Assembly (NCBI GenBank): GCA_003219195.1
Contig: QHPX01000144.1
Coordinates: 1-41,127, forward strand
Origin: Verrucomicrobiota bacterium
GTDB taxonomy: Bacteria; Verrucomicrobiota; Verrucomicrobiia; Chthoniobacterales; UBA10450
Direction of reading: 5' to 3'
Length of the DNA: 41,127 nucleotides
The notes under the pieces were generated by a model. It saw only the letters and a program-made list of their open reading frames with translations, did no database searches and was not told the origin of the DNA. Positions 1,282 to 39,390 of the stretch are shown piece by piece. Both the position numbers and the translations under genes were made by a program. The stretch's first letter is position 1. Each line of letters begins with the position of its first letter.

Positions 1282-2202
1282 ATGAAGAACTTGCGAGTCG
1301 GCGTTGTTGGCGTCGGACACATTGGAAGCAATCATGCCCGGCTCTACGCTGAAACTCCCTCGGCGGAGTTTTCCGCGATTTACGATGTCGATCTTGCGAA
1401 AGCGAACGCCATTGCGAAAAAATATCGCGTTACGCCTGCGCAATCGCTCGACGAATTTGTTGAGATGGTCGATGCGGCCTCGATTGCGACGCCGACCAAT
1501 ACGCACTACGAAGTTGCGCGTTCCCTGCTTGCTCGCGGCAAACATTTGCTGATAGAGAAACCAATTACCGACAACGCCGCTCATGCCGGCGAATTGGCGG
1601 AATTGGCGGCGCAAAATGGACTGGTTTTGCAGGTCGGCCATGTCGAGCGATTCAACCCGGTTCTGAGCGCGCTTGAAGAACGGTTGACGCATCCGCGCTT
1701 TATCGAAGCGCACCGGCTCTCGCCTTATCCGGAACGCAGCACGGACATTGGGGTCGTGCTCGATCTCATGATTCACGATCTTGAAATTATTTTGCACCTC
1801 GTGCGCTCGCCCGTGCAGACCATCGACGCTGTCGGTGTGGCAGTGTTGAGCCGCGGCGAAGACATCGCGAACGCGCGCCTGCGTTTTGAGGATGGTTGTG
1901 TCGCAAATATCACTTCGAGCCGCATCAGTCCCGAGCGGATGCGCAAGATCCGCGTTTTTCAGGAGGACGCTTATCTCTCGCTCGATTATGAAAAACAGAG
2001 CGGCGAAATCTATCGGCGCGCGGAAGGCCGGATCACGCGCGAGAAGGTGGAGATCGCGCGAGAGGAGCCGCTCAAACATCAACTTGTTTCGTTCGTCGAA
2101 TGCGCGAGGAGCGGACGCCAGCCGCGCGTTTCCGGGTTTCAGGCGATCGCGGCGCTGGAACTGGCGATCGAAATCACGAAGCGGATCGACCCGAGTGTCT
2201 AA
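1282..2202 (+). CDS. Gfo/Idh/MocA-family oxidoreductase next to lpxB
   Basis: This is an NAD(P)-dependent sugar oxidoreductase of 306 aa. It has an N-terminal nucleotide loop (GVGHIGSNHA), the family EKP motif with its catalytic-region lysine (LLIEKPI, about residue 93), and a second domain starting near GHVERFNPV. The gene follows fcl by 15 nt, and its stop overlaps the lpxB GTG start. In several lineages an oxidoreductase of this family beside lpx genes (GnnA type) oxidises the 3-OH of UDP-GlcNAc, so that a diamino sugar can be used for lipid A. That function is plausible from the neighbourhood, but no GnnB aminotransferase is seen here. A sugar dehydrogenase for another glycan is the alternative. 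It contains one TGTCGATCTT motif (1386). Confidence 0.85.
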   Translation: MKNLRVGVVGVGHIGSNHARLYAETPSAEFSAIYDVDLAKANAIAKKYRVTPAQSLDEFVEMVDAASIATPTNTHYEVARSLLARGKHLLIEKPITDNAAHAGELAELAAQNGLVLQVGHVERFNPVLSALEERLTHPRFIEAHRLSPYPERSTDIGVVLDLMIHDLEIILHLVRSPVQTIDAVGVAVLSRGEDIANARLRFEDGCVANITSSRISPERMRKIRVFQEDAYLSLDYEKQSGEIYRRAEGRITREKVEIAREEPLKHQLVSFVECARSGRQPRVSGFQAIAALELAIEITKRIDPSV

Positions 2203-3403
2203 GACGATTTATTTTGTCGCCGGCGAAGCAAGCGGAGACAATCACGGAGCGGAGCTGATGCGCTCCTTGCGGCAACTCGCTGTCGATCTTCACTTCATCG
2301 GGCGCGGCGGACCGCGAATGAAAGCGACTGCAGGCAGGCAATTTCACGACTGGATCGGGAACGCGGCCGTTCTCGGTTTGTGGGAAGTGATCAGGAATTA
2401 TGGTTACTTCCGAGAAAAGTTTCGCGAAACGCTCAGCGAGATCGAGAAGAGCAAACCCGACGCGGTCGTGCTGATCGATTATCCCGGCTTTAATTTGCGT
2501 CTCGCGCGTGCGCTGCGTCTGCGGATCGGGGCGCACAAGATCGTCTACTACATCAGTCCGCAAGTTTGGGCCTGGAACCGCGGACGCATCAAAAAGATGG
2601 CGCGCTTTCTCGATCTCATGCTCTGCATTTTTCCGTTCGAAGCCGATCTCTATAACCAATCCGGCCTGCGCACGGTTTTCGTCGGGCATCCTATGATCGA
2701 AAGATTGCGCGCCTGCAAGGTCGACATCGAACGCGATCCAAACTTGGTCGCACTTTTCCCGGGAAGCCGCTCTCGCGAGGTGCGCAAAATTTTTCCGGTC
2801 CTGATTGAAGCGGCGCACAAACTGCGAAGGCGAAAACCAAATCTTCGTTTCGAAGTCGCAGCCGCGTCGGATGAGCTCGCTCAAGAAATGGACGAAATTT
2901 TGGATCGATCCGCCTCAGGCGGACAAGATCGACAACGAAGCCGGCGGAAGCCGAGCGACGTAGACGGGAAGCGCGAAGCGTTGACGAGCGGGAAGCGAGA
3001 AAATCAATCCTTCGAAATTAGGACCGGCGAAGCGGCGACGATTATGCAGCGCGCGTGCGCGGGAATCGTTGCTTCAGGAAGCGCCACGCTCGAGGCCGCG
3101 TATTTCCGGCTGCCCTTTGTGCTTATTTACAAAGTCGCGTGGCCGACGTATCTGGCGGCGCGACTGGTCGTGAGCGTAAAATATCTCGGCATGCCCAACG
3201 TGCTCGCGGACAAAGAAGTCGTGCCGGAATTCATTCAGCATCGAGCAAAAGGTCGGGCGATTGCGAACGCGGTCTTGCGATTGATTGATGAGCCGTTCAC
3301 GCGGGAGCAAATGATTTCCGAGTTCGATGCAATCATTGCCAAACTCGGTGAGGGCGGAGCGAGCGACCGCGCCGCGAACGCGATTATTAATGAACTCGGT
3401 TAG
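2195..3403 (+). CDS. lpxB: Lipid-A-disaccharide synthase with a repeat-derived insert
   Basis: LpxB joins UDP-2,3-diacylglucosamine and lipid X into the lipid A disaccharide at the inner face of the cytoplasmic membrane. The protein is 402 aa from a GTG at 2195 that overlaps the preceding stop. The N-terminus (AGEASGDNHGAEL), the central SPQVWAWNRGRIKK and VGHPM, and the later ASGSATLEAA and GMPNVLA are all typical. Most LpxB proteins are about 380 aa. The excess is explained by about 33 extra residues (roughly 240-272) that are Arg/Ser/Lys-rich and encoded by copy A of the dispersed repeat (2925-3007 plus a short flank). The insert keeps the frame and lies between EILDRS and FEIRTGEA, probably a surface loop before the nucleotide-sugar-binding C-terminal half. 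The downstream glycosyltransferase overlaps its 3' end. Confidence 0.93.
   Translation: MSKTIYFVAGEASGDNHGAELMRSLRQLAVDLHFIGRGGPRMKATAGRQFHDWIGNAAVLGLWEVIRNYGYFREKFRETLSEIEKSKPDAVVLIDYPGFNLRLARALRLRIGAHKIVYYISPQVWAWNRGRIKKMARFLDLMLCIFPFEADLYNQSGLRTVFVGHPMIERLRACKVDIERDPNLVALFPGSRSREVRKIFPVLIEAAHKLRRRKPNLRFEVAAASDELAQEMDEILDRSASGGQDRQRSRRKPSDVDGKREALTSGKRENQSFEIRTGEAATIMQRACAGIVASGSATLEAAYFRLPFVLIYKVAWPTYLAARLVVSVKYLGMPNVLADKEVVPEFIQHRAKGRAIANAVLRLIDEPFTREQMISEFDAIIAKLGEGGASDRAANAIINELG
2925..3007 (+). repeat. Dispersed ~85-bp coding-insert element, copy A (in lpxB)
   Basis: The copy starts with AAGATCGACAA and ends with AATCAA. It shares the internal blocks GGAAGCCGAGCGAC and GAGCGGGAAGCGAG with copies B, C and D. 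A palindrome, CGCCTCAGGCGG, lies just outside it (2911-2922); in copy D the same palindrome lies inside. With its flank, the insertion adds about 99 nt (2912-3010) to lpxB, a multiple of three, and brings no stop codon in the lpxB frame. Confidence 0.8.
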
Positions 3404-4862
3404 CCCGGCAGGAAGCTTTGTCGAAAACACCCTGGCGGCTTGGATCGTTAGCGCGATTGCGGTCGTTTTGTTTTTGATAACGAATCTGCCGTGGCAGCTC
3501 GACGATTACGATCAGGCCAAGCAGGCGGTCACCTCCTTCGAAATGGTCAAGGAGGGTCATTGGTTTTATCAACACACGCCGCACGAACGCGTGGCGACAA
3601 AACCGCCGCTGGTGGGATGGATCTCGGCCGGGTTTTTCTCGCTGACGCAATCGTGGGAAATCGCGTGGCGGTTGCCGTCGCTTCTCGCGGCAATTGCGTT
3701 GTCGATTTTGCTCTTTCGCTTCGGGAATGTTTACGGAGCGCTCGGAGGCCTTATCGCGATGAGCGCGTTCGCGTTTAATTTGCTCACGCCGCGATTGGCC
3801 TCACTTGTTCGCACGGACATGTCGCTCGCGTTGGTCGTGTTTCTGATCGGCCTGCAAATTTGGAAGAAGATTTGTGATGGAACTCGATGGGAGCGGCGGG
3901 ATCAATTGTCGATCTTCGTGCTGTTGACGGCGGCGATGTTGATTAAAGGGCCGATTGTTTATGCGTTTTTATTGCCAGGCATCGTCGTTTACCAATTGTG
4001 GCGGAGCAAAAGGAACGCGATATCTGCGTGGTCTGGTTGGTGGCCGTGGCTTGCGTCGCTTGGAATTTTTCTCGTCTGGGTGATCGGCGGAATTTTTTCT
4101 GAGCCGGACTTTTTTAATCAGGTCGTGCTGCGTGAATTCGCGGGGCGTTTCGGCGGAGAAATTCATCGCTCGCAACCGCTCTATTTTTATTTCCCGCATC
4201 TCCTGCACAAATTTTCCCCGTGGAGCGTCTTGATGATCGCAATTGCGGTTATCGCTCTTCGCTCACGGCGATGGAGGGTTGGCGCTGCATTTCGGGAGAT
4301 GTCACCCGAAACCTTCTGGCTCCTTGGTTGGAGCTTGGGCGGCTTAATCGTGCTGTCGATCATTCCATCGAAGCGTGTCGATCGGATTTTCCCCGTCATT
4401 CCGCCGCTTTGTTTGCTGCTCGCAGCGCAGGTCGGAAAAATGTTATCCCGGGAACAACCGCGCGAGCGCATTTACCGGTGGAGCGCCGTCGCCCTCTTCT
4501 TGTCGATCTTATTTACGAGCGGTTACACGATCTCGAAAGTTGTTTCCGGATATCGCGATCATCGCGCCGCGCTTGTGATTTTTGGGCGCGAGGTTCGCCA
4601 TGAAGCGAAGGTGCATCATTGGCGATACGAGACGATCCGGTCAAGCGACGAAGGAATGTTGCTCTATTTGCAAAAAACACATTTCATCGAGCCGGACGAG
4701 GCGATCAGAGAATGGAACCGGGGTGCGCTGGATGCGCTGGTCGCGCCCACGGACGAAGCGCCGCGCCTGATGCGCGAGCTTTCAAATGCATCACTTTCGC
4801 CAATCCGACCAGTGGAGAGAAAGAATGAGCAAGACATCGGTTATGTTTTGCTCACGCGCTAA
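3390..4862 (+). CDS. ArnT/PMT-like membrane glycosyltransferase (GT83 type)
   Basis: This is an integral membrane glycosyltransferase of 490 aa. Such enzymes transfer a sugar from a polyprenyl-phosphate carrier to lipid A or protein on the periplasmic side. The ATG at 3390 lies inside the last codons of lpxB, so the two are translationally coupled. The sequence shows a first membrane segment (AAWIVSAIAVVLFLI), then the acidic LDDYDQAKQ and the KPPLVGW motif typical of the ArnT/PMT_2 fold. About eight to ten further hydrophobic helices follow, and the C-terminus is soluble. The position after lpxB suggests a lipid A or LPS target, perhaps addition of an amino sugar or neutral sugar; the substrate cannot be read from sequence. 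It contains two TGTCGATCTT motifs (3907, 4501). Confidence 0.85.
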   Translation: MNSVSPAGSFVENTLAAWIVSAIAVVLFLITNLPWQLDDYDQAKQAVTSFEMVKEGHWFYQHTPHERVATKPPLVGWISAGFFSLTQSWEIAWRLPSLLAAIALSILLFRFGNVYGALGGLIAMSAFAFNLLTPRLASLVRTDMSLALVVFLIGLQIWKKICDGTRWERRDQLSIFVLLTAAMLIKGPIVYAFLLPGIVVYQLWRSKRNAISAWSGWWPWLASLGIFLVWVIGGIFSEPDFFNQVVLREFAGRFGGEIHRSQPLYFYFPHLLHKFSPWSVLMIAIAVIALRSRRWRVGAAFREMSPETFWLLGWSLGGLIVLSIIPSKRVDRIFPVIPPLCLLLAAQVGKMLSREQPRERIYRWSAVALFLSILFTSGYTISKVVSGYRDHRAALVIFGREVRHEAKVHHWRYETIRSSDEGMLLYLQKTHFIEPDEAIREWNRGALDALVAPTDEAPRLMRELSNASLSPIRPVERKNEQDIGYVLLTR

Positions 4863-4967: not shown

Positions 4968-5501
4968 ATGCCCGAAGAAATTCCCAAGCGAGAAATGGAA
5001 GCGCTTTGGTGCCCGTGGCGCGTCGAATATTTCGAGCGCGAGAAACCCGACGCGAACTTTCTTTCCGAGGCGGCAAGAACAAGCGATGACGCCGCACACT
5101 TCGTAATCACACGGCGCAAGAATGCGTTTCTCATGATGAACCGGTATCCGTACGCGGTGGGTCACTTGATGGCGGTGCCGTATCGCAAGACGGCCGATCT
5201 TGCGGCGCTGGGTGAGAACGAAATTGTCGAGCTTTGGAATTTAGTGACGCATGCGCAAAGGCTGCTGCGTGCCACGATGAAAGCGCAAGGATTCAACGTC
5301 GGGCTGAACCTGGGCGAATGCGCGGGCGCGGGCATTGTGGATCACTTGCACGTGCACATTGTGCCGCGATGGAGCGGCGACACCAACTTTATGCCGATCC
5401 TTGCTGGCACTCGCACGCTTTCGGAAGGACTGCGCGGTCTTTATGACAAACTGATCGACGCGCAGGCGAAGATCGACATGGCGAAAGGCGCACGCGCATG
5501 A
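4968..5501 (+). CDS. HIT-family nucleotide hydrolase/phosphorylase (Ap4A phosphorylase-like)
   Basis: This 177-aa HIT-superfamily protein probably cleaves dinucleoside polyphosphates or related nucleotides. The His-triad signature is DHLHVHIVPRW near residue 125, preceded by NVGLNLGECAGAGI. The N-terminal LWCPWRVEYF resembles the LWAPWRMEYI of the mycobacterial-type Ap4A phosphorylases, which suggests that branch over the shorter Hint hydrolases. ATG 4968 is the first start after the palindromic repeat; an ATG at 4998 is possible and would still keep LWCPWR. Its TGA overlaps the ATG of the next gene (ATGA). One AAGATCGACA motif (5469) encodes AKID near the C-terminus. Confidence 0.85.
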   Translation: MPEEIPKREMEALWCPWRVEYFEREKPDANFLSEAARTSDDAAHFVITRRKNAFLMMNRYPYAVGHLMAVPYRKTADLAALGENEIVELWNLVTHAQRLLRATMKAQGFNVGLNLGECAGAGIVDHLHVHIVPRWSGDTNFMPILAGTRTLSEGLRGLYDKLIDAQAKIDMAKGARA

Positions 5502-6145: not shown

Positions 6146-6147
6146 CA

Positions 6148-8219: not shown

Positions 8220-10016
8220 ATGAGCCGCATTCGATTGCTGCCGGAGATCGTCGCCAGCCAGGTCGCGGCCGGCGAAGTGGTGGAGCGCCCTGCTTCCGTG
8301 GTGAAAGAACTCATCGAGAACAGCATCGACGCCGGCGCGCGTAAGATCGACATCTTGATTCGGCGCGGTGGAATTTCGCTCCTCCGCGTGATCGATGACG
8401 GCTGCGGCATGGATCGCGATGACGCGCTCCTTTCGCTCGAACGTCATGCCACGAGCAAGATTCGTTCGGCGGCAGATCTTCATGCGATTGCCACACTTGG
8501 ATTTCGCGGAGAAGCTTTGCCAAGCATCGCGAGTGTTTCGCGCTTTCGACTGACGACGCGCGAAGCGGACGCTGTCGCCGGCACCGAAATCATCGTGAAC
8601 GGCGGCAAGATCGACATTGTGCGCGACGGCGGCGAAGCACCTGGAACGCAAGTCGAGGTGCGTTCTCTTTTTTACAATCTGCCCGCCCGCCGGAAATTTC
8701 TTCGCTCGGAGAACACCGAAAGCCGGAATATCGAGCACCAGCTCCACCTCCAGGCGATCGGACATCCCGAGATTGCTTTCACCTTTGTGCGCGACGATCG
8801 GCTCGTGCTTCAACTTCCGCGGGCGGCAAATCTCCATGACCGCATCCGGGATTTGCACGGAAACGAATTGCTCGAGCGGTTGCTTCCCTTGACCAGCGCC
8901 GGGCTGGGTAAGATCGACATCGGCGGATTGATCGGGCAGGCGGGCGTGAGCCGGCAGACGCGGGCACAGCAGCTCGTCTTTGTGAATGGCCGCGCGATTG
9001 AAAGCCCGGTGGTCACGGCGGGATTGCGCGAGGGTTATCATACCGCGCTCATGAAAGGGCAATTTCCCGTAACGTTCCTTTTCTTAAATCTCGATCCAGC
9101 GTCGGTGGATGTGAACGTCCATCCCGCGAAACGCGAGGTCCGGTTTCGCGATCCAACCGGGGTGCGCGAGGCCGTGGTCAATTCTATTCGGCGCGCGCTT
9201 GAAGGTGGGCGCGGCGACTGGCAGGAGAAATTTCGCGCACCAAATATCTCGCCATTATCAGCGCTGCCGATCGAACGGGAGACGCGACCAATCGAAGTGC
9301 AGCCCGCGTTTGCGCAGCAAACAATTGAGACGCTGCCGCGTGTTGCGCCGAGCGGGTTCGAGGGGCCCCGTAAACTACCGGACACGACGACGCCTGCCGA
9401 AGAGAGGATCGACAAGAAGGTTCCTCAGCAATTTCAGATCATCGGCGTTTTGAACAAACTTTACGTCTTGATGGAGAATGCGGACGGGCTCGTCCTGGTC
9501 GATCAGCATGCGGCGCATGAACGCATTCTTTTTGAGGAATTGCGCCGGCGAATGGAGGAACAGGGCGTTCCCTCCCAGAAATTGTTGCTTCCTCAAACTT
9601 TCGATCTCTCCCCGCGCGACGCCGAATGGGTCGAGCGCAACATGTCGATTTTGCAAAAAATGGGAATCGGTATCGAAGGGTTCGGACCGAACACTTTCAA
9701 GATCGACTGTCTGCCGGCATTCTTGAAAACGTCCGATCCGGTCAGCTTCATGCAGCGAGTCGTCGATGATCTCAAGAGCGCGAGCAACAGCAGCTCACCA
9801 TTGCGTCTGGGCGAAGAGACGATCGCAAAAACGGTTTGCCGTCATGCCGTGAAAGCCAATGATCCGCTGCGCTATCTCGAAGTTGAAAAACTCATCCAGG
9901 ATTTGCTTGGCTGCGATCTGCCTTATTGCTGTCCGCACGGACGGCCGACGATGATTCAAATTTCGCTGGCGGAGTTGGAGAAGAAATTCGGCCGGCGAAG
10001 TGCGATCCAAACTTAA
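8220..10016 (+). CDS. mutL: DNA mismatch repair protein MutL
   Basis: MutL couples MutS mismatch recognition to downstream excision. The protein is 598 aa. The N-terminal GHKL ATPase has ELIENSIDAGA (motif I), DDGCGM (motif II) and TLGFRGEAL (motif III); NVHPAKREVRF follows near residue 310. A variable linker (about 340-400) leads to the C-terminal dimerisation domain. That domain carries DQHAAHERILFEE, which matches the endonuclease metal motif DQHAxxERxxYE with F in place of Y, plus VCRHAVKAND and CCPHGRP. This MutL is therefore probably an endonuclease, as in bacteria lacking MutH. Three AAGATCGACA motifs (8343, 8607, 8910) each encode KID within 570 nt. Confidence 0.96.
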   Translation: MSRIRLLPEIVASQVAAGEVVERPASVVKELIENSIDAGARKIDILIRRGGISLLRVIDDGCGMDRDDALLSLERHATSKIRSAADLHAIATLGFRGEALPSIASVSRFRLTTREADAVAGTEIIVNGGKIDIVRDGGEAPGTQVEVRSLFYNLPARRKFLRSENTESRNIEHQLHLQAIGHPEIAFTFVRDDRLVLQLPRAANLHDRIRDLHGNELLERLLPLTSAGLGKIDIGGLIGQAGVSRQTRAQQLVFVNGRAIESPVVTAGLREGYHTALMKGQFPVTFLFLNLDPASVDVNVHPAKREVRFRDPTGVREAVVNSIRRALEGGRGDWQEKFRAPNISPLSALPIERETRPIEVQPAFAQQTIETLPRVAPSGFEGPRKLPDTTTPAEERIDKKVPQQFQIIGVLNKLYVLMENADGLVLVDQHAAHERILFEELRRRMEEQGVPSQKLLLPQTFDLSPRDAEWVERNMSILQKMGIGIEGFGPNTFKIDCLPAFLKTSDPVSFMQRVVDDLKSASNSSSPLRLGEETIAKTVCRHAVKANDPLRYLEVEKLIQDLLGCDLPYCCPHGRPTMIQISLAELEKKFGRRSAIQT

Positions 10017-10080: not shown

Positions 10081-11085
10081 ATGAAGGAGAACGAAAAAGC
10101 CGCGCTCATCACCGGAATCGGAGGCCAAGATGGTTCCTACCTGACCGAGCTACTCCTGGAAAAAAATTACACCGTTCATGGAATGGTGCGGCGCACGAGC
10201 AATTTGCTGCGCTCACGCATCGAGCACCTGCGGCGCGATGAGAAGATTTACGGCCAACGATTTTTTTTGCATTATGGCGATCTATCGGACGGAACAACGT
10301 TACGCCGCATTTTCCGCAACGTGCGCCCGACTGAGCTTTATCATCTGGCGGGACAAAGCCATGTCGGCCTGAGTTTCGAAATCCCTGAATCCACCTGCGA
10401 AGAGGCGGGAATGGCGACGCTGCGCTTGCTCGAGATCGCGCGGGATCAGCCCGCACCGGTGCGGTTTTACCACGCCTCAAGCTCGGAAATTTTTGGCAAT
10501 GCAACGGAAACTCCGCAAACGGAGAAGACACCAATGCTTCCAACCAGTCCTTACGGCTGCGCCAAAGCGTTCGCCACACAACTGGCGCGCGTTTACCGGC
10601 AATCCTACGGGCTGTTTGTTTGCAACGGTATTCTCTATAATCACGAATCGCCGCGCCGCGGCGAAAATTTTGTTACGCGCAAGATCGCGCGCGGGGTCGC
10701 GCGGATTGCGCGCGGACTGGATGTCGATCTTGTCCTGGGCAATCTGGAGAGCCGGCGAGACTGGGGCCGCGCCCAGGATTACGTGAGAGCCATGTGGCTG
10801 ATGCTGCAACACAAAGCCGCGGACGATTATATCGTGGCGACCGGCGAGACGCATTCCGTGCGCGAATTTGTTGAGGCCGCCTTCGCCATTGTCGATCTTC
10901 CCTGGGAAAAATATGTGAAGCGCGATCCCTCTTTCGATCGTCCGACCGAGCCGGCGAATCTGGTCGGTTGTGCGGACAAGATCCGCCGCGTGCTTGAGTG
11001 GAAGCCGACCGGAACTTTTCCGCAGCTGGTACGCGAAATGGTCGAGGCCGAGCTGGCGGCGATCGAAATAAAAAGTGGACAGTAA
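10081..11085 (+). CDS. gmd: GDP-mannose 4,6-dehydratase
   Basis: This enzyme converts GDP-D-mannose to GDP-4-keto-6-deoxy-D-mannose, the substrate for the GDP-fucose synthase at 331-1266 and for GDP-rhamnose/perosamine routes. The protein is 334 aa. It shows the cofactor loop TGIGGQDGSYL, the family VRRTSNLLRSRIEHL, HLAGQSHVGLSF and the catalytic Y-x3-K in SPYGCAKAFA. ILYNHESPRRGENFVTRKI and WGRAQDYVRAMW are diagnostic of GMD. Start at ATG 10081; an in-frame TTG at 10051 falls inside the hairpin and is unlikely. It is probably transcribed toward uppP, 27 nt further on. It contains two TGTCGATCTT motifs (10722, 10890). Confidence 0.96.
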   Translation: MKENEKAALITGIGGQDGSYLTELLLEKNYTVHGMVRRTSNLLRSRIEHLRRDEKIYGQRFFLHYGDLSDGTTLRRIFRNVRPTELYHLAGQSHVGLSFEIPESTCEEAGMATLRLLEIARDQPAPVRFYHASSSEIFGNATETPQTEKTPMLPTSPYGCAKAFATQLARVYRQSYGLFVCNGILYNHESPRRGENFVTRKIARGVARIARGLDVDLVLGNLESRRDWGRAQDYVRAMWLMLQHKAADDYIVATGETHSVREFVEAAFAIVDLPWEKYVKRDPSFDRPTEPANLVGCADKIRRVLEWKPTGTFPQLVREMVEAELAAIEIKSGQ

Positions 11086-11112: not shown

Positions 11113-11985
11113 ATGCACGATTTTTTCTTGTCGATCTTGCTCGGCATCGTTGAAGGGCTCACCGAATTCCTCCCCGTGAGCTCGACCGCCCATCTCCGGA
11201 TTGTTGAGGCGCTCCTCAATCTCGATCTCCACGATAGCTTTTGGAAGATGTACACGATCGTGATCCAGTTGGGCGCGATCCTGGCGTTGCCAGTTTATTT
11301 TTGGCAACGCATCATTCAATTCATCGGCACATTTCCGAAAGGCGAACGCGGCGACCGCAACTTTCTGACCCATCCGCTCAGCCTGACGCTGATCGCGTTT
11401 GTGGTCACAGCGCTTCCGGCGTGGGCATTGACAAAGGTGATTGGCAAAAATTTGGAAAGCCTGGTCGTCATGGCGACGGCGCTGCTCATCGGCGGAGTCG
11501 TGATGTGGATTGTCGATGTAACTTTCACGCACCCGCGCGTGACGCACATGGAGGAAATGAATTTGCCGCAAGCGGTGTGGATCGGCGCAGTGCAGATCCT
11601 TTCCGCGGTTTTTCCCGGCACGTCGCGGTCGATGTCCACGATCGCGGCCGGGCAAGTGGCCGGTCTGTCGCGGCCGGCTGCGCTTGAGTTTTCTTTCTTT
11701 CTTTCCATGCCGACAATGGTCGTGGCCACTTTGTACGATCTTTACAAAACGCTCGCGCCCAATCGCAATTTCGCAACGGAAGGCAATCTGGCGCCGCTGG
11801 CGGTGAATACGCACCAATGGATTTTGCTCACGATTGGCTTCGTTGTTTCATTCATCGTTGCGCTCGGTGTGGTCGCCTGGTTTATACGCTGGGTGCGCAC
11901 CCGAGGCTTTGCACCGTTCGCCGTTTACCGGATCGCGCTCGGAGCCATCATTTTGTTGGGGCTTGCCTTGCGTGGCGTAAGCTAA
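11113..11985 (+). CDS. uppP: Undecaprenyl-diphosphatase (bacitracin resistance protein)
   Basis: UppP dephosphorylates undecaprenyl diphosphate to recycle the lipid carrier of peptidoglycan and O-antigen synthesis. It is an integral membrane protein of 290 aa with about eight hydrophobic helices. Both signature regions are present: EGLTEFLPVSSTAHL near the N-terminus, containing the catalytic glutamates, and PGTSRSMSTIAAG near residue 168 with the conserved Arg. The neighbouring gmd/fcl and the uppS gene 4 kb downstream share the same lipid-carrier economy. One TGTCGATCTT motif (11129) encodes LSIL close to the start. Confidence 0.95.
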   Translation: MHDFFLSILLGIVEGLTEFLPVSSTAHLRIVEALLNLDLHDSFWKMYTIVIQLGAILALPVYFWQRIIQFIGTFPKGERGDRNFLTHPLSLTLIAFVVTALPAWALTKVIGKNLESLVVMATALLIGGVVMWIVDVTFTHPRVTHMEEMNLPQAVWIGAVQILSAVFPGTSRSMSTIAAGQVAGLSRPAALEFSFFLSMPTMVVATLYDLYKTLAPNRNFATEGNLAPLAVNTHQWILLTIGFVVSFIVALGVVAWFIRWVRTRGFAPFAVYRIALGAIILLGLALRGVS

Positions 11986-13615: not shown

Positions 13616-13824
13616 TCGCGAAGGCTATTTGTGTCCACGGTGAGATGGCAATCCTTATCTTCGGTCTCCATAAGTGGGAGCGGGCGGGAGCGACTGAAAA
13701 GATCGACAAGTAATCGGGACCAAAATGTCTTGCAGTGGTCTCGCGCCAACCTATTGTTCGTCCGCACTCCCGAGTGCATTCGGCCGGATGCTTCGGGAAA
13801 ATTTTTTGCCTGTTTCGAATTCCG
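13616..13824. other. Intergenic leader of purA
   Basis: This gap of about 210 nt between the divergent DUF3309 gene and purA probably holds both promoters. It contains one AAGATCGACA motif (13699-13708), preceded by GGGAGCGGGCGGGAGCGAC, which weakly resembles the end of the dispersed element but is not alignable over its length. No purine riboswitch-like structure was recognised. Confidence 0.4.
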
Positions 13825-15093
13825 ATGGCGAACACGATTCTAATCGGCGCGCAATGGGGCGACGAAGGGAAGGGGAAAATCATCGATGTGCTCACGGCAA
13901 AAGCCGACGTCGTCGTCCGCAGCCAGGGCGGGAACAATGCGGGCCACACCGTGCTCCATCGTGGCGCCAAATACATCCTGCACATGATCCCGTCGGGAAT
14001 TCTCCGGCGCGGAAAGACGTGCGTGATCGGCAACGGCGTAGTGATCGATCCAATCGCGCTCCTCTCCGAGATGGACAGCTTGCGCAAATTGGGGATCAAA
14101 ATTGGAAAAAACTTGCTGATTAGTGATTGCGCCCATCTCGTTTTGCCTTATCACCGCGTCATCGACGAACAGCGTGAGCTGCGCAAAGGCCGCGCGAAAA
14201 TAGGGACGACTAAACGCGGGATCGGCCCGGCCTATGGCGATAAAGCCGCCCGCACTGGGCTGCGCGTTTCCGATTTGATGCAACCGATCCTTTTCTCAAA
14301 AAAGTTGCAGGCCAAGATTGTCGAGAACAACAGCATTCTCCAGGCCCTCGGCGCAAAGCCGATCAGTTTTCGCGAGGTGAACGAAAGTTATCTCGCGGCG
14401 GGGGAAAAGTTGCGCCCGTTCGTTTGCAACACGGTAGTTTATCTTCATCGCGCTCTTCAGCGCGGCAAGGAAATTCTCTTTGAAGGCGCACAAGGGACGT
14501 TTCTCGATATCGATCACGGCACTTATCCATACGTGACTTCATCAAATACGACTGCGGGCGGCGCGTGCACGGGCACGGGAGTACCGCCGCACCGGATGGA
14601 CCGCGTGGTAGGAGTGATGAAAGCGTATACGACACGCGTAGGCGAAGGGGCGTTGCCCACCGAAGATCGACAATTAGCCGCAACGCTTCACAAACTGGGC
14701 CGCGAATTTGGAGCGACAACCGGGCGTGCCCGCCGCTGCGGCTGGTTTGATGCCGTGGCCACGCGTTATGCAACGATGATTAACGGCATCGACGAGCTTG
14801 CCATCACAAACCTGGACGGGCTCGACCATGTCGATCCTATCCGTGTTTGTGTGGCGTATCGGCTGAATCGAAAACGTCTGGATGTTCCACCGTGCGATGC
14901 GGCACAGCTCGATAATTGCGACCCGATTTACAAAGAAATGCCCGGCTGGAATCAATCCACGCATTCAGCGAAAAAACTTTCGCAACTTCCTTCAGCAGCA
15001 AAGGATTACGTCAAATACATTTCCACACTCACCGGAGCCAAATTATCGATTGTCAGTGTCGGGCCGGCTCGCGGTGAAACGATTATTTTGTAG
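13825..15093 (+). CDS. purA: Adenylosuccinate synthetase
   Basis: PurA catalyses the GTP-dependent joining of IMP and aspartate, the first committed step to AMP. The protein is 422 aa, the usual length. The N-terminal GAQWGDEGKGK is the diagnostic P-loop with the catalytic Asp. RSQGGNNAGHT with the catalytic His, TKRGIGPAYGDKAAR, EGAQGTFLDIDHGTYPYVTSS and TTGRARRCGWFDAV are all intact. Start ATG 13825 gives the canonical MANTILIGAQWGDEGKG; upstream codons back to 13735 are not family-like. uppS follows directly. One AAGATCGACA motif (14663) is read in a third frame as EDRQ. Confidence 0.97.
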   Translation: MANTILIGAQWGDEGKGKIIDVLTAKADVVVRSQGGNNAGHTVLHRGAKYILHMIPSGILRRGKTCVIGNGVVIDPIALLSEMDSLRKLGIKIGKNLLISDCAHLVLPYHRVIDEQRELRKGRAKIGTTKRGIGPAYGDKAARTGLRVSDLMQPILFSKKLQAKIVENNSILQALGAKPISFREVNESYLAAGEKLRPFVCNTVVYLHRALQRGKEILFEGAQGTFLDIDHGTYPYVTSSNTTAGGACTGTGVPPHRMDRVVGVMKAYTTRVGEGALPTEDRQLAATLHKLGREFGATTGRARRCGWFDAVATRYATMINGIDELAITNLDGLDHVDPIRVCVAYRLNRKRLDVPPCDAAQLDNCDPIYKEMPGWNQSTHSAKKLSQLPSAAKDYVKYISTLTGAKLSIVSVGPARGETIIL

Positions 15094-15874: not shown

Positions 15875-17038
15875 TCAGACAAACGCTTCCGCTACCGAAT
15901 CGGCCAGCGATTTTCCAGCGGTGGTCAGCACGAAATTGCCATATGATTGTCGAAGCAAACCGAGCGCGACGAACTCTTGCGTTTCCTTCGGCCATGCTTG
16001 GAGCGATTCCGCCGAGATCCCTTCAACGGTACGCAATGAAAAAGCGATTCGCTCGGCGCGCTTCATTTCGGGAGTGAGTTGCTCCATTGTCCCCATGGCC
16101 GATTTTCCCGATAAAATCCGGCCGGCGTAATCGCGATAATCAGAAACGTTCTGCCAGCGCTGTGACCCGCGGGTTGAAAATGCGCTTGGACCGATCCCAA
16201 GATAATCTTCGCCGGCCCAGTAAGCGCTATTGTGTGCCGAGGAGAAGCCGGGCAGCGCGTAGTTCGAGATTTCGTAATGTTCGTAGCCCGCATTTTGCAA
16301 GATCGACATCGTCATTTCGAACAACTGCGCGTCGACATCTGGATCGGCGTGGAACTCGCCGCGCGCCTGCCGGAGGAAAAATTCCGTGTCCTCCTCGTAA
16401 GTCAGACAGTAAGCAGAGATATGTTCGGGTTGCAGGCTGATCGTTTTCTCCAGGGTCGAGCGCCACTGCGGCGTGGTTTGGCCCGGCAGCCCGAACATAA
16501 GATCGACATTTATATTCGTGAATCCCGCCGCGCGCAGAATGAAAAATGACTTCTCCGCCTGCGGCGCATTGTGTTCGCGCCCGAGAATTTTTAGCATTTC
16601 CTCGTCCCAGGATTGCACACCGAGACTGATTCGATTCACACCGTGCTCCTGAAACAAAGCAGCCTTGCGCGGGGAGACGCTTCCGGGATTCGCTTCGACC
16701 GTCCATTCTGTCAATGTCGAGAGATCGAGCAGGGCACGAAAGCCTTTGAGGAGACGTTCAACCTGCGAAGTTGTGAGAGCGGTTGGCGTGCCGCCACCGA
16801 AGTAAATTGTCGATGGAAGGAGATGTCGATCTTGGGTGTGGTGCTTAAGTTCGCACAACACCGCTTCACAGAAGCGCTCGGTTTGCGATCGATCGAGCAG
16901 CTCTTTGTAAAACGCGCAGTACGGACAAATGCGCGCGCAAAACGGGATGTGCAGATAGAGGTGTCGAATCGGAGCGGGCGCCGGTTCTGATTTGCCGCAG
17001 TTGTGATTCTTCCTGTTGTTCATAGAGTCCGTTGCCAT
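15875..17038 (-). CDS. hemW: HemW-like radical SAM heme chaperone
   Basis: This radical SAM protein is related to coproporphyrinogen III oxidase HemN but belongs to the HemW heme-chaperone branch; it is 387 aa. The 4Fe-4S/SAM motif is CARICPYCAFY (C-x3-C-x2-C), preceded by LYLHIPFC. GGGTPTAL, VEANPGS and GVQSWDEEMLKILGR follow. HNSAYWAGEDYLGIGPSA is the HemW signature. ATG 17038 is used; ATG 17023 is equally possible, since the first about 25 residues are not conserved. It is divergent from the DUF362 gene with only about 17-32 nt between starts. It contains three copies of the 10-mer motif (16299, 16499, 16824), each in a different reading frame. Confidence 0.93.
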   Translation of the reverse strand: MATDSMNNRKNHNCGKSEPAPAPIRHLYLHIPFCARICPYCAFYKELLDRSQTERFCEAVLCELKHHTQDRHLLPSTIYFGGGTPTALTTSQVERLLKGFRALLDLSTLTEWTVEANPGSVSPRKAALFQEHGVNRISLGVQSWDEEMLKILGREHNAPQAEKSFFILRAAGFTNINVDLMFGLPGQTTPQWRSTLEKTISLQPEHISAYCLTYEEDTEFFLRQARGEFHADPDVDAQLFEMTMSILQNAGYEHYEISNYALPGFSSAHNSAYWAGEDYLGIGPSAFSTRGSQRWQNVSDYRDYAGRILSGKSAMGTMEQLTPEMKRAERIAFSLRTVEGISAESLQAWPKETQEFVALGLLRQSYGNFVLTTAGKSLADSVAEAFV

Positions 17039-24158: not shown

Positions 24159-25706
24159 TCACAATCTCCTCCAGGCGCGTCCATCGCGCGCGAGTAGATC
24201 GTCGGCTTCTTCCGGGCCCCACGAGCCGGCCGGATAAAAAAACAAATCAGGCGCATCTTTTTTCGCGACCCACGCATTTTCAATGATGTCGATAAAAGCC
24301 CACGCTTCCTCGACTTCATCGCGCCGGGCAAAGAGAGTGGCATCGCCACTCATGGCATCGAGCAGCAAACGTTCGTATGCCTCCGGGCTGGCTTTGCCGA
24401 ACGAAGTTCCGTAATGAAAATCCATTTTCACCGGCTGGATGCGGAAGCTGGTGCCCGGCATTTTTGCCTGCATGCGCAATGAAATTCCTTCATCCGGCTG
24501 AATCCGAATAACGAGTACGTTTTGGTCGAGTGTTACGGCTTCCTTGTTAAACAAAACGGCGGGCGCTTTTTTGAAGTGCACGGAAATCTCAGTGCCCGAT
24601 TTGGGAAGCCGTTTCCCGACGCGCATGTAAATCGGGAGGTCTGACCAGCGCCAGTTGTCGATGTACAAACGCAAGGCCACGAACGTTTCCGTTGTGGAAT
24701 CTGTTTTGACTTTTTCTTCCTCCCGGTAACCGGCGACCGATTTGCCGTTGATCGCCCCCTGCGCGTACTGGCCGCGCACAACGGCCGAGGCGATTTCACC
24801 CTGAGAAAAACGGCGAAGCGAACGAACGACCTTCACTTTTTCATCACGGATGCTATCGGCGCTCAAATCGGTGGGCGGCTCCATCGCGACGAGACAGAGC
24901 AGTTGGAGCAAATGATTCTGCACCATGTCGCGCAACGCGCCCGCGCCTTCGTAGTAACCGGCGCGACCTTCGACTCCGAGCGTTTCCGCGGCGGTAATCT
25001 GGACATGATCGACATAGTGCCTGTTCCAAAGCGGCGCGAAGATCGCATTCGCAAAGCGCAGCACCAGAATGTTCTGGGCTGTTTCTTTCCCGAGAAAATG
25101 ATCGATCCGATAGGTTTGTTCTTCTGCGAAAGAATTGCGGACGATGCGATTGAGTTCGCGCGCGGACGCAAGATCGGTTCCGAACGGTTTTTCGACGATA
25201 ACCCGCGCCCAGCTCCCTTCGCACGTTTTGTTCAAACCTGCCGCCTTCAAGTTTTTCAGGATCGGTTCGAACTGATCAGGCGCGGCCGCGAAATAAAAAA
25301 GACGATTGCCGCGTGTCCCCCGCTGCTTGTCGATCTTGTCCAGACGTTGCGCCAAACTTTTGTAGCCGGACTCGTCTTCAAATTCGCTCTGGTGATAAAA
25401 AATGGATTGCGCGAAAGTTTTCCAGATTTCGTCGCGCACCGTTTGCCGGGAGAATTTTCGTGTCGCGTCCTCGAGCTCGCGTCGAAATTCGTCATCGCTT
25501 TTTTCGCGACGCGCAAAGCCAACGACCGCGACCGCGGGCGGCAGCTCGCCGTCGGCCGCGAGATTGTAGAGAGCGGGGATGAGCTTGCGATGAGTGAGGT
25601 CGCCGGTCGCGCCGAAAATCACGATGCTGCACAGCTGTGGCACGGCGCGGTTGGACAGACCTTCGCGCAACGGATTTGTTTGCTGTTGTTCGCTAGTCCG
25701 GTTCAT
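24159..25706 (-). CDS. zwf: Glucose-6-phosphate 1-dehydrogenase
   Basis: Zwf oxidises glucose-6-phosphate to 6-phosphogluconolactone, the NADP-reducing entry of the pentose phosphate pathway. The protein is 515 aa. The cofactor loop is [18 protein letters not shown]. The active site is [16 protein letters not shown] with the substrate-binding [18 protein letters not shown] and the C-terminal [13 protein letters not shown]-like end ([15 protein letters not shown]) are typical. opcA follows directly. The upstream 115 nt contains a palindromic repeat that belongs to the 3' end of the next gene in the same direction. Confidence 0.97.
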
Positions 25707-25763: not shown

Positions 25764-25820
25764 CTAGCGGCGGTCTATGACCGCCGGCCAGTGATGCGAC
25801 GCTCATAGAGCGCCGCTACA
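25764..25820. repeat. CTAGCGGCGG...GCCGCTACA palindromic repeat
   Basis: The inverted ends CTAGCGGCG and CGCCGCTA(CA) and the inner GGTCTATGACC hairpin match the element at 15812 and 19203. It lies just past the stop of the phosphatase-GlyA gene and upstream of zwf on the minus strand. Confidence 0.8.
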
Positions 25821-25821
25821 A

Positions 25822-27760: not shown

Positions 27761-28777
27761 ATGCGCAGGCGATGGAAAAAATTTCGCTACCGACTGGAAT
27801 GGGCCGGTCTTCACGCCACGGCAAAACTAGTTCCATTGCTCTCCCGCAAAGCCTGCTTCCGCCTCGCGCGCATTCTCGGATTTGTCATGTCGATCTTTGA
27901 TCGACATGGCCGCAAGGTCGCGCTGAGCAATCTGGACGTTGCCTTCGGCGACGAATTGCCGATCGCTACGCAGCGCAAAATCGTTCGCCAATCGTTTCAG
28001 CATTTCGCGCGAACGTCGCTCGATCTTTTGTGGAGCCCGCGATTGTCACGCGAAAATTTTCGCGATTACATCGAGTTCGAAAACTTGGAGGAAATCGACC
28101 GAGCGACCGGACCAGAGCGCAACTTCATCACTGCTTGTTATCACTACAGCAATTTTGAATGGTTCAGTCTCGCGAGTGGTTACTCGGGGTTGACCGGGAC
28201 GATCATCACTCAGGAATTCAAAAACTCACTGCTCGATCCGATCTTCAAAAAAATCCGCGAACAATCCGGGCACGAGATGATCCCGCGCGAGCGCGGCATC
28301 ATTCGCCTTTACAAAGTGCTGCGGCGAAAAGGACGCACGGCTTTGCTGGTCGATCTTACGGTGCCGCCAGATCAAGGCGCCGTGGCCATTGATTGCTTTG
28401 GGCTAAAGACCAGCGTGACTTCAGCGCATGCGTGGCTGCATAAGCAAACCGGCGTGCCGATCATCCCGGTGCATTGCGAGCCACTCGCGGGCGGTCGTTA
28501 CCGAGTGGTTTTTCATGACAAGATCGACAACACGGAAGCGATGACGCTGCAACAGATCGCGCAAGCGTGTTGGAATTCGTTCGAGCCTTACGTGCGCAAA
28601 AATCCCGCGCCCTGGCTCTGGATGTACAAACACTGGCGCTTCCGGCCGCTCAACGCCCGCCGCAAATATCCGTTTTACGCGCACACATGGGTGCGATTCG
28701 ACGCACTTCTTCAACCGGACAATGCGCCGTCGGCCGTTACATCGACAGTTGGGCCGCCAGAGGTCTGCGATGGTTGA
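27761..28777 (+). CDS. LpxL/HtrB-like lipid A acyltransferase
   Basis: This is a 338-aa membrane-associated acyltransferase of the LpxL/LpxM (lysophospholipid acyltransferase) superfamily, which adds secondary acyl chains to lipid A. The catalytic H-x4-E is HYSNFE, and FGLKTSVTSAHAWLH and the late PWLWMYKHWRF match the family. The N-terminal region has one hydrophobic segment (about residues 15-45). ATG 27761 is chosen; an upstream GTG (27746) adds five residues. It is divergent from the glyA fusion with about 140 nt between starts. It fits with lpxB in this window. Confidence 0.87.
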   Translation: MRRRWKKFRYRLEWAGLHATAKLVPLLSRKACFRLARILGFVMSIFDRHGRKVALSNLDVAFGDELPIATQRKIVRQSFQHFARTSLDLLWSPRLSRENFRDYIEFENLEEIDRATGPERNFITACYHYSNFEWFSLASGYSGLTGTIITQEFKNSLLDPIFKKIREQSGHEMIPRERGIIRLYKVLRRKGRTALLVDLTVPPDQGAVAIDCFGLKTSVTSAHAWLHKQTGVPIIPVHCEPLAGGRYRVVFHDKIDNTEAMTLQQIAQACWNSFEPYVRKNPAPWLWMYKHWRFRPLNARRKYPFYAHTWVRFDALLQPDNAPSAVTSTVGPPEVCDG

Positions 28778-31772: not shown

Positions 31773-31812
31773 GCTTGACAGGCAAGATCGACATCCTTCA
31801 GCCTAAACGACC

Positions 31813-32253: not shown

Positions 32254-32292
32254 CTGCATCCTAGTTATCGCTAAGATCGACAATCACATTCG

Positions 32293-35795: not shown

Positions 35796-36560
35796 ATGTT
35801 TGGAATCGGACGGCGACGCAAGATCGACAAATTGGATTTTATCCTGGCTGGTGCGCAAAAATCGGGAACGACGGCGCTGCATTATTTTTTAGAAAAACAT
35901 CCGCGGATTACGATGGGCGATCAGGAGGAAATGCATTTCTTCGACGACGACGGCCTGTTTTCGGGTCCGGTCGATTATGAATTGTTACATCGACATTTCC
36001 CGTTGCTGCCAAGGTCGACAATCGCGGGTGAATGCACGCCAAGCTACTTGTATTGGAAACCGGCGGCTGAGCGGATTTGGAATTACAATCCGCGAATTAA
36101 ACTGCTCGTGCTCCTGCGAAATCCAGTCGAGCGCGCTTTTGCCCATTGGAACATGCAACGATTCAAAGGTCGCGAGCCGCTCGATTTACTCGACGCGGTG
36201 AAGAAGGAAAAATCACGGGTTGCCGGCGCGCCGCCTCGGGAAGCCCGCCGCTTCGCCTATGTCGATCGAGGATTTTACGTGCAGCACCTCGAGCGCTTCT
36301 TTCGATTTTTTTCACGAGAACAAATGATGATTATCAAGTTTGAAAAATTTCGACAGGAGCAGCGCGAAACACTGGATTCAATCTTTTCATTTTTAGGTGT
36401 GAAACCACTTCCATCGTTCCGCAGTAAGGACAGAAACGTCGTGCCGTACCAGCGTGCGATGAATTGGGAGGAGCGACTTTTTCTTTACAACATTTTCGCG
36501 GACGACATCGCAACGCTCGAGCAGTTGCTCGGTTGGGATTGCTCGGATTGGAAACTGTAG
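35796..36560 (+). CDS. PAPS-dependent sulfotransferase family protein
   Basis: This is a 254-aa sulfotransferase of the heparan/bacterial type, moving sulfate from PAPS to a carbohydrate or other acceptor. The 5'-phosphosulfate-binding loop is LAGAQKSGTTAL, and the 3'-phosphate-binding segment is LLRNPVERAFAHW. Later VIKFE-like and NWEERLFLYN are also typical. ATG 35796 is chosen over a GTG at 35787. The acceptor is unknown, but the polysaccharide and lipid genes nearby make a surface glycan plausible. One AAGATCGACA (35820) encodes RKIDK. Confidence 0.87.
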   Translation: MFGIGRRRKIDKLDFILAGAQKSGTTALHYFLEKHPRITMGDQEEMHFFDDDGLFSGPVDYELLHRHFPLLPRSTIAGECTPSYLYWKPAAERIWNYNPRIKLLVLLRNPVERAFAHWNMQRFKGREPLDLLDAVKKEKSRVAGAPPREARRFAYVDRGFYVQHLERFFRFFSREQMMIIKFEKFRQEQRETLDSIFSFLGVKPLPSFRSKDRNVVPYQRAMNWEERLFLYNIFADDIATLEQLLGWDCSDWKL

Positions 36561-36566: not shown

Positions 36567-36632
36567 CGGTAGGGCGACGCTCTGCGGAGCCGTAGAATCA
36601 TCTCGTCGGCTAGACAGAGTCGCGCCCTACCG
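36567..36632. repeat. CGGTAGGGCG palindromic repeat
   Basis: The inverted ends are CGGTAGGGCG and CGCGCCCTACCG (near match over 18 nt). It lies between the convergent sulfotransferase and methyltransferase genes. The TAG read from its right end (CTA 36627-36629) is the methyltransferase stop codon. Confidence 0.75.
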
Positions 36633-37464: not shown

Positions 37465-37555
37465 AAGATCGACAATGGAGCCCGCCTCAGGCGGGGAGCC
37501 GAGCGACATGGACAGGCAGCCCGCAAGGGTGAGCGAGCGGGAGCGAGCGAATCAA
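37465..37555 (+). repeat. Dispersed ~85-bp element, copy D (intergenic, longest)
   Basis: This begins AAGATCGACAATGGAGCC, contains the palindrome CGCCTCAGGCGG and the block GAGCGACATGGACAGGCAG, and ends GGGAGCGAGCGAATCAA. It is the best reference copy (91 nt). It ends at the last codon region of the small membrane gene on the opposite strand, whose TAA stop (37556-37558) is immediately adjacent. Confidence 0.85.
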
Positions 37556-37779: not shown

Positions 37780-38649
37780 GTGAATGAAGCGCAGGGCCGG
37801 GTTTGGAAGAAGATCGCGGTGTTTTACACGCTGACGATGCTTTTCAGCGGCGTGTTCGACGCTTTCGTTTTGCACGCCGGCAGAATGGATGCGGGCAACT
37901 TTCTCTACGTCACTGGCGCGATGTGGAGCCCGGCGCTGGCTGCTTTTGCGACGAAAAGAATCTTTCGCGAAAGAATTGGTGATTTGCCGTGGACCTGGAG
38001 CGGCGCCCGCTATGCCTGGCTGGCTTATATCATCCCGATCGGCTATGCCCTGCCAGTGTACCTCATTGTCTGGCTCACCGGTCTTGGCGGCTTTTACGAT
38101 GTCGATCTTGCCAAAAAAATCGCAGAGCAATTCGCTTGGGTGAATCTTCCGCCAAGCCTCCTGCTCGCGCTTTTCGTTCTGTTGACGGCGACGCTCGGGA
38201 TGATCGGCAAAATGTCGCGCGCGCTCGGAGAAGAGATCGGCTGGCGCGGCTTTCTCGTGCCGGAATTATCGAAAGTGGTCGGTTTCTCGGGAACCGCAGT
38301 CATCAGCGGTTTAATGTGGCCCGTTTATCATTATCCAATTCTGCTCTTCGCCGATTACAACGCCGGAACTCCTGCCTGGTATGGCTTGATCTGTTTCACG
38401 ATCATGGTGGTGGCCTCCAGTTTTATCCTGACGTGGTTGACACTGCGTTCGGGCAGTCTTTGGCCGGCGGCAATTTTCCATGGCAGTCACAACCTCTTTA
38501 TTCAATCCATTCTCTCGCCCCTTACGAAAAACACTGGCATAACCAAGTATATTATCGACGAGTTCGGGATCGGACTCGTAATCACGACTCTGATCGGTGC
38601 GATTATTGTTTGGCGGAGACGGCTCGAGCTGCCGCAAAGAATACCGTGA
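37780..38649 (+). CDS. CPBP-family intramembrane metalloprotease
   Basis: This is a 289-aa polytopic membrane protein of the CAAX-protease/bacteriocin-processing (Abi) family. The catalytic glutamates are in GEEIGWRGFLVPEL (EE-x3-R). The metal-binding histidines follow in WPVYHYP and FHGSHNLF. About seven to eight hydrophobic helices are present. Start is a GTG at 37780; no in-frame ATG is nearby. Substrates of bacterial members are mostly unknown. One TGTCGATCTT motif (38100) encodes DVDLAKK. Confidence 0.87.
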   Translation: MNEAQGRVWKKIAVFYTLTMLFSGVFDAFVLHAGRMDAGNFLYVTGAMWSPALAAFATKRIFRERIGDLPWTWSGARYAWLAYIIPIGYALPVYLIVWLTGLGGFYDVDLAKKIAEQFAWVNLPPSLLLALFVLLTATLGMIGKMSRALGEEIGWRGFLVPELSKVVGFSGTAVISGLMWPVYHYPILLFADYNAGTPAWYGLICFTIMVVASSFILTWLTLRSGSLWPAAIFHGSHNLFIQSILSPLTKNTGITKYIIDEFGIGLVITTLIGAIIVWRRRLELPQRIP

Positions 38650-38667
38650 ATTGCGCGGCAGCGATTG

Positions 38668-39390
38668 TTACAAGCCGATGGGGTGACGCGCGTCAAAGCC
38701 GCGAGTGTCGCGAAAGTCCGTGCGCCAGCGTGGGCCAATGTCGGTGCCGTAGCGTAGATCGGTCGTATCGAGGCGCAGGCCGGCAATAATGGCAAAGGTG
38801 TGGCCGGGCCGCGCATAAATTGTGATCCATTTTCCACGGCCCCGTTCGCCATAACGGAGAAAATCGCTCGATGGGAGCGGCGCGCCGAGAAGCCCGGCGT
38901 GATAAAGGGCGAAGGAAACGGCGCCGGAACAGTCGTAGCCATAATCGTCGAACGACCCGTGGCCACCGCCCCAAACATACGGTTTGCGGCGGAGAGAGTT
39001 CGCCGCCCAAATCGCGGACTTGACGGTTGCCGGAGCGTTCGCTGGTGCGTAGGCGATCCCGTTGCGCAAGATAGCGCGCCTGCCGCTAATAACCGGACGC
39101 GCGGCGTCATTGTCGATCTTGGAAACCGAGTCCGTTTCGTCATTATCTTGTGCAACTGCTTCGGCGCGCGGGATGGCGCGCGGCGCGTAATACGCGAGGC
39201 GAACAGGCGCTGGTTTATCCAGAGAGAACGGCTGGAGCGCAACGATCGCCTCTTCGGCGTGGCGCCCGCGAGGTTTTTGCTCCTCTGCGTCGGACGACGT
39301 GGCGACAAAAGTGAAGAGCACGAGCAGGCAGAAGAGCGCTGCTTGTCCGCATCTTCGCAGGTTCTGTCGAAAGGAAATCGGGTGCGGCAC
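38668..39390 (-). CDS. Secreted NlpC/P60-like cysteine peptidase
   Basis: This is a probable cell-wall endopeptidase of 240 aa from GTG 39390, whose next residues form a signal peptide (QAALFCLLVLFTFVATSSDA). The frame is open to a TTG at 39537, but that extension lacks a signal. The catalytic domain (about 130-240) has GGGHGSFDDYGYDCSGAVSFAL with the nucleophile Cys, and ARPGHTFAIIAGLRLDTT with the His. The linker before it is polar and contains SKIDND, encoded by a TGTCGATCTT motif (39111). Cell-wall cleavage is inferred from the fold family. Confidence 0.78.
   Translation of the reverse strand: MPHPISFRQNLRRCGQAALFCLLVLFTFVATSSDAEEQKPRGRHAEEAIVALQPFSLDKPAPVRLAYYAPRAIPRAEAVAQDNDETDSVSKIDNDAARPVISGRRAILRNGIAYAPANAPATVKSAIWAANSLRRKPYVWGGGHGSFDDYGYDCSGAVSFALYHAGLLGAPLPSSDFLRYGERGRGKWITIYARPGHTFAIIAGLRLDTTDLRYGTDIGPRWRTDFRDTRGFDARHPIGL

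What the first reader, a model, noticed from the sequence alone, without database searches (positions are those of the whole stretch)
1386..39120. A 10-mer, AAGATCGACAW, about 400-fold enriched: candidate uptake or chromosome-marking sequence
By hand count 33 exact copies lie in 41 kb, where about 0.08 are expected for a random 10-mer on both strands. Only about ten one-mismatch copies were noticed although there are 30 such sequences, so the peak is sharp, as for a maintained signal. Orientation is balanced (17 to 16), unlike polar motifs such as Chi or KOPS. It occurs in all coding frames and between genes, so codon or peptide bias cannot explain it. One site per about 1.25 kb matches the density of DNA uptake sequences in Neisseria or Haemophilus and of HIP1 in cyanobacteria. 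I know of no such motif described for this lineage. It contains GATC, so a methylation link is possible.
Basis: partly seen in the sequence, partly recalled or inferred. Interest (0 to 1): 0.9.

Follow-up and report, generated by a model that had tools for sequence, protein, structure and literature searches.

The report
Soil Verrucomicrobia genome-wide DNA self-tag
A 10-11 letter DNA word is repeated about 1,400 times across the genome of an uncultured soil bacterium and its relatives, is kept at the same gene positions over long evolutionary time, and most likely acts as a label by which these bacteria recognise and take up DNA of their own kind; a sister group uses a completely different word.

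Summary
AAGATCGACA occurs 33 times in the window (0.11 expected) and 1419 times in the 2.82 Mb genome (693 forward, 726 reverse; the reversed word 0 times). The peak is sharp, with a weaker 11th position (A/T). Enrichment is confined to one family of Verrucomicrobia (probably order Chthoniobacterales), reaching 4653 copies (about 1.6 per kb) in one genus, with background counts elsewhere in the class. Sites are maintained as DNA: against a genus at 73% nucleotide identity 26 of 33 are identical (background 7%), and where the peptide is conserved 23 of 23 are identical (controls 18%). New here: a sister clade lacks this word but carries an unrelated word, GCCTAACGA, at about 2000-4600 copies; one genus carries both. 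The words follow the tree. ComEC, DprA, pilins and PilT-family ATPases are present. Orientation is balanced, flanks are mostly unique, the word is not palindromic, and Dam-type methylases are nearly absent. Best reading: a DNA uptake-type self-recognition sequence, apparently new for this phylum, with two unrelated 'dialects'. Uptake and a receptor are not shown; competence genes also occur in motif-poor relatives. Unexplained extra: head-to-tail pairs at exactly 15-16 bp.

The parts
1386..1395 (-). AAGATCGACA (next base T)
2281..2290 (-). AAGATCGACA (next base G: the only site without W)
2925..2934 (+). AAGATCGACA
3907..3916 (-). AAGATCGACA
4501..4510 (-). AAGATCGACA
5469..5478 (+). AAGATCGACA
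8343..8352 (+). AAGATCGACA (in mutL)
8607..8616 (+). AAGATCGACA (in mutL)
8910..8919 (+). AAGATCGACA (in mutL)
10722..10731 (-). AAGATCGACA
10890..10899 (-). AAGATCGACA
11129..11138 (-). AAGATCGACA
13699..13708 (+). AAGATCGACA (just upstream of the purA reading frame)
14663..14672 (+). AAGATCGACA (in purA)
16299..16308 (+). AAGATCGACA (antisense in radical SAM gene)
16499..16508 (+). AAGATCGACA (antisense in radical SAM gene)
16824..16833 (-). AAGATCGACA (in radical SAM gene)
18439..18448 (-). AAGATCGACA (overlaps end of a dispersed repeat)
20364..20373 (+). AAGATCGACA
20438..20447 (-). AAGATCGACA
20724..20733 (+). AAGATCGACA
20867..20876 (-). AAGATCGACA
23084..23093 (+). AAGATCGACA
23354..23363 (-). 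AAGATCGACA
25328..25337 (-). AAGATCGACA (in glucose-6-phosphate dehydrogenase gene)
27888..27897 (-). AAGATCGACA
28520..28529 (+). AAGATCGACA
31784..31793 (+). AAGATCGACA (between reading frames)
32273..32282 (+). AAGATCGACA (between reading frames)
35820..35829 (+). AAGATCGACA
37465..37474 (+). AAGATCGACA (overlaps a dispersed repeat)
38100..38109 (-). AAGATCGACA
39111..39120 (-). AAGATCGACA

Best explanation
AAGATCGACAW is a DNA uptake-type self-recognition sequence of one family of Verrucomicrobia. Proposed mechanism (inferred): a surface DNA receptor, most likely a pilin of a competence type IV pilus, binds the word preferentially. Fragments carrying it are pulled in, passed through ComEC, protected by DprA and recombined. 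Because alleles with the word are taken up more often, copies accumulate and are held at the same chromosomal positions by biased import plus selection. A sister clade's receptor prefers an unrelated word, GCCTAACGA, and that word has accumulated there instead. Shown here: the words, their counts, clade distribution, orientation balance, spacing, DNA-level conservation, and the presence of competence and pilus genes. Inferred: receptor, preferential uptake, and import as the maintaining force.
For: Genome-wide counts and the zero control. A sharp peak with A/T at position 11. Confined to family f1 among 83 family and 286 class genomes. The second word GCCTAACGA, found by unbiased k-mer search in sister genera, has 1980-4605 copies in the g2 and g10 genomes counted and 1802 in G013, which also has 4653 of the first word. 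On a 13-genome tree each word falls in its own clade, with the two-word genome sister to the AAGATCGACA clade. Sites are kept exactly at orthologous positions within a word group: 26/33 against 7% background (P 2.6e-24), 9/11 against 6%, and GCCTAACGA 8/14 against 8%; no comparison between word groups exceeds background significantly for sites of the source genome's own abundant word. With the peptide conserved, 23/23 motif sites are DNA-identical against 18% of controls (P 5e-18). Orientation is balanced across 20 kb blocks and the two words together leave no gap over 3 kb in 327 kb of G013. 91% of own-genome sites have no repeated flank. ComEC, DprA, PilT-family ATPase and pilin genes are present. 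Density lies in or above the range published for Neisseriaceae and Pasteurellaceae uptake sequences (PMC3630211; PMC12616744).
Against: Competence and pilus genes are equally present in motif-poor genera and in other families, so they do not discriminate. No pilin tracked with either word in a partial survey. No uptake or binding data exist. The organisms are known here only as genome assemblies, many incomplete. The two words share no obvious core, unlike Neisseriaceae dialects, which share CTG.
Confidence: 0.72

Rival explanations
1. A HIP1-like iterated sequence created and kept by DNA methylation or mismatch-repair bias, with no role in uptake.
For: HIP1 is a high-frequency genome-wide word that contains GATC and is replaced by alternative words in some cyanobacteria (PMC4390886). 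AAGATCGACA contains GATC.
Against: HIP words are palindromic; neither word here is. HIPs go with matching methylases; no PF02086 (Dam-class) methylase was found in 10 of 11 motif-rich genomes, including G000 (87% complete) and G013 (98%). GCCTAACGA has no GATC. Other methylase families were not searched.
Confidence: 0.1
2. A binding site for a chromosome-organising, segregating or recombination protein (Chi-, KOPS- or nucleoid-protein-like).
For: Genome-wide, maintained at the DNA level and evenly spaced. Head-to-tail pairs at 15-16 bp could suit a dimeric binder.
Against: No consistent orientation bias across 20 kb blocks of G013, unlike Chi or KOPS. No thinning in any sampled stretch of G013. 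Replacement by an unrelated word between sister clades is unusual for a housekeeping site.
Confidence: 0.12
3. By-product of codon or peptide bias, or of a dispersed mobile repeat.
For: Some sites overlap or adjoin dispersed repeats (window 18366-18447 and 37465-37554).
Against: All six frame/strand classes and intergenic DNA are used. Only 17 of 190 sites share a flank with another. Synonymous positions are frozen inside the word.
Confidence: 0.02

Closest known systems
DNA uptake sequence (DUS) of Neisseriaceae, read by the minor pilin ComP
   Same: 10-12 bp non-palindromic word, about 900-6000 copies per genome, dialects congruent with phylogeny, one genome (Simonsiella muelleri) with two dialects (PMC3630211).
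   Different: Unrelated sequence, phylum Verrucomicrobia; the two words here share no evident core (Neisseriaceae dialects share CTG); no ComP-like receptor identified; uptake untested.
Uptake signal sequence (USS) of Pasteurellaceae, Hin and Apl types
   Same: Short word, 31-913 per Mb across the family, two dialects (PMC12616744).
   Different: Unrelated sequence; the Hin and Apl types share invariant positions, the two words here are unrelated; G013 has about 1600 per Mb of the first word plus about 620 per Mb of the second.
HIP1 and alternate HIPs of cyanobacteria
   Same: Dense genome-wide word, contains GATC, replaced by other words in some genomes (PMC4390886).
   Different: HIPs are palindromes tied to methyltransferases; here non-palindromic and Dam-class enzymes nearly absent.

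Membership tests
DNA uptake sequences (functional class) | Short non-palindromic word, hundreds to thousands of copies, sharp peak | tested here: met
DNA uptake sequences (functional class) | Both orientations equal, coding and intergenic, spread evenly | tested here: met
DNA uptake sequences (functional class) | Clade-specific dialects congruent with phylogeny | tested here: met
DNA uptake sequences (functional class) | Competence and type IV pilus genes in the genome | tested here: met
   ComEC, DprA, PilT family, pilins; but also present in motif-poor relatives
DNA uptake sequences (functional class) | Cognate DNA receptor (minor pilin) tracking the word | tested here: inconclusive
   no pilin group tracks either word in a partial survey
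DNA uptake sequences (functional class) | Word enhances DNA uptake or transformation | not testable with these tools
   needs experiment
Neisseriaceae DUS | Core CTG shared by all dialects | tested here: not met
   AAGATCGACA and GCCTAACGA contain neither CTG nor CAG; defining core from PMC3630211
Pasteurellaceae USS | Core AAGTGCGGT (Hin type) | tested here: not met
   different word; Hin consensus from PMC5217627
HIP sequences | Palindromic word | tested here: not met
   sequence itself
HIP sequences | Matching DNA methyltransferase in motif-rich genomes | tested here: not met
   PF02086 absent in 10 of 11 motif-rich genomes; other methylase families not searched
Chi/KOPS-type polar motifs | Orientation biased along a replichore | tested here: not met
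   no consistent bias over 20 kb blocks of G013

The most novel reading that the evidence does not exclude
An independently evolved self-DNA recognition system in an uncultured lineage of Verrucomicrobia that uses two unrelated recognition words: one in each of two sister clades, with one genus retaining or acquiring both, and with word pairs set at 15-16 bp that point to a cooperative or dimeric reader.
Probability: 0.6. Interest if true: 0.9.

Novelty: new variant of a known kind. Interest (0 to 1): 0.82.

Why it matters
To my knowledge, over-represented uptake sequences are documented in two proteobacterial families. A third, unrelated origin in another phylum would allow a direct test of how such words arise, switch and isolate lineages sexually. 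It would also imply ongoing homologous recombination by transformation in uncultured Verrucomicrobia, and the word could serve as a practical tag for assigning metagenomic contigs and spotting recently acquired DNA.

Tried and rejected
Literature search for the word gave only chance matches, such as primers and constructs, among the papers listed; searches for uptake sequences in Verrucomicrobia found no report. Codon or peptide bias rejected by frames and frozen synonymous sites. Dispersed-repeat origin rejected: 17/190 shared flanks. Hairpin or terminator pairing rejected: no recurring inverted spacing in the own genome. Polar motif rejected. Dam methylation not supported. A receptor hunt by pilin groups gave nothing tied to either word; the conserved three-pilin locus looks like type II secretion (GspG/H/J-like, by my reading of the sequences), not competence. 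In-place replacement of one word by the other at orthologous sites: 0 cases.

Full report
OBSERVATION. AAGATCGACA is present 33 times in the window, 17 on the + strand and 16 on the - strand, against 0.11 expected from dinucleotide-preserving shuffles; with W at position 11 there are 32. The whole genome assembly (2.82 Mb, 183 contigs, 87% complete) holds 693 forward and 726 reverse copies, while the word read backwards without complementing occurs 0 times. In 335 kb of this genome there are 190 exact copies; the 30 one-mismatch variants average 5.5 and the two-mismatch variants 1.25. Position 11 is A in 53% and T in 43%; further flanks are nearly free. In the window the one-mismatch copies total 25 rather than about ten, which does not change the conclusion.

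WHERE IT OCCURS. By PurA, the closest named records are Verrucomicrobia isolate AV42 (84% identity), an uncultured Chthoniobacter (73%) and a record labelled Akkermansia (68%). The order also contains 0.9 Mb single-contig genomes, which would fit Xiphinematobacter; the order Chthoniobacterales is therefore my inference. Among 83 genomes of the same family the word is strongly enriched in genera g1, g8, g11, g12 and g13, and variably in g5 and g14 (74 to 1016 copies), with the maximum of 4653 copies in G013 (2.9 Mb, g11). Genera g2, g3, g4, g6, g7, g9 and g10 have roughly 10 to 85 copies. In 286 genomes sampled across the class, no genome outside this family exceeds about 55 copies.

A SECOND WORD. 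An unbiased k-mer search on sampled DNA of sister genera found GCCTAACGA in g2, g10 and G013, plus weaker traces in g3, g6 and g9. Whole-genome counts are 2147 (G004), 1980, 2754, 4605 and 2183 (g10 genomes G012, G021, G027, G033) and 1802 in G013, against reversed controls of about 50-70. Genera g3, g6, g7 and g9 are mildly raised (about 190-590) and g4 is near its control. Outside the family the word has 0 to 30 copies, in every case below its control. G013 thus carries both words at high density. A 13-genome tree from reading frames of one conserved secretion locus puts the AAGATCGACA genomes in one clade (support 88), G013 as its sister, and the four GCCTAACGA genomes in another (100). The frame set of that tree includes some overlapping antisense frames, so its support values are inflated.

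MAINTAINED AS DNA. Against G013 (73% nucleotide identity) 26 of 33 aligned sites of the own genome are identical, where 7% of background 10-mers are (P 2.6e-24); G015 to G013 gives 9/11; GCCTAACGA from G012 to G004 gives 8/14 against 8.4% (P 4.6e-6). Sites of one word group's genomes are not kept above background in the other group. Local background around the sites is no higher. Restricting to sites whose encoded peptide is conserved, 23 of 23 sites are DNA-identical between own genome and G013, against 18% of 16,063 control windows (P 5e-18). So the nucleotide word, not the protein, is what is kept. Control windows overlap each other, so the P values are approximate.

DISTRIBUTION. Coding sites use all six frame/strand classes; intergenic density is about equal to coding density in the own genome and about 2.5 times higher in G013 (crude gene calling). 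Orientation shows no consistent bias over 20 kb blocks of 327 kb of G013, and no interval over 3 kb lacks both words. Close neighbours are under-represented (39 gaps of 20-150 bp against 98 expected), except for 34 head-to-tail pairs at exactly 15 or 16 bp where chance gives about one (the expectation is my arithmetic from that output). Spacers and outer flanks of these pairs differ. Only 17 of 190 own-genome sites share a flank with another site; in G013 119 of 533 do, partly because of the close pairs.

MACHINERY. ComEC is found in 53 of 58 and DprA in 53 of 58 relatives, PilT-family ATPases in 56 of 58, 52 of them over the curated cut-off, and pilin genes in all 13 genomes searched. These genes are as common in motif-poor relatives, so they permit but do not prove uptake. 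Dam-class methylases (PF02086) are absent from G000, G013 and eight other motif-rich genomes and present in one (G015). Grouping of the pilins recovered gave no pilin family that tracks either word; that survey was partial and cannot exclude a pilin whose specificity changed without its presence changing.

INTERPRETATION. Density, balance, sharpness, clade-wise replacement and DNA-level maintenance together match DNA uptake sequences. Published values: about 1900 copies in meningococcus, 5918 in a 2.4 Mb Kingella, two related dialects together in Simonsiella (PMC3630211), 31-913 per Mb in Pasteurellaceae (PMC12616744). It works like a DUS; membership in the Neisseriaceae or Pasteurellaceae families is not met by sequence. 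HIP-like and chromosome-organising rivals remain possible at lower probability. No earlier report of these words or of uptake sequences in this phylum was found in the paper library searched, which lacks most subscription journals.

Noticed in passing
G013 (L121-L125, L278, L279, L287-L289, L294-L300); also G000:C9:24489/24504, G010:C15:143/158, G014:C6:1387/1402: Head-to-tail pairs of AAGATCGACA at exactly 15 or 16 bp period (34 in 327 kb of G013, about 1 expected), with differing spacers and flanks.
   Followed up: partly
window 18366-18447, 19202-19262, 21016-21071, 25762-25823, 36567-36631, 37465-37554: Short (55-90 bp) dispersed repeats; those in the stretch searched have many copies in same-genus genomes, apparently a separate repeat family, some overlapping a motif site.
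   Followed up: partly
G000 contigs C4 (L092), C5 (L093), C23 (L104, 18.9 kb), C26 (L107): Contigs of the own assembly with no copy of the word; those looked at carry accessory-type genes such as kelch repeats, halogenase-like and AMP-ligase genes, RND efflux. Either acquired islands or binning contamination.
   Followed up: partly
G012, G021, G027, G033, G004, G013: Second genome-wide word GCCTAACGA. It resembles an integron attC half-site (GCCTAAC, from memory), but copies are single, unpaired and genome-wide.
   Followed up: yes
window 25822-27621 (-): One reading frame matching both a low-molecular-weight phosphotyrosine phosphatase domain and serine hydroxymethyltransferase: an apparent fusion.
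   Followed up: no
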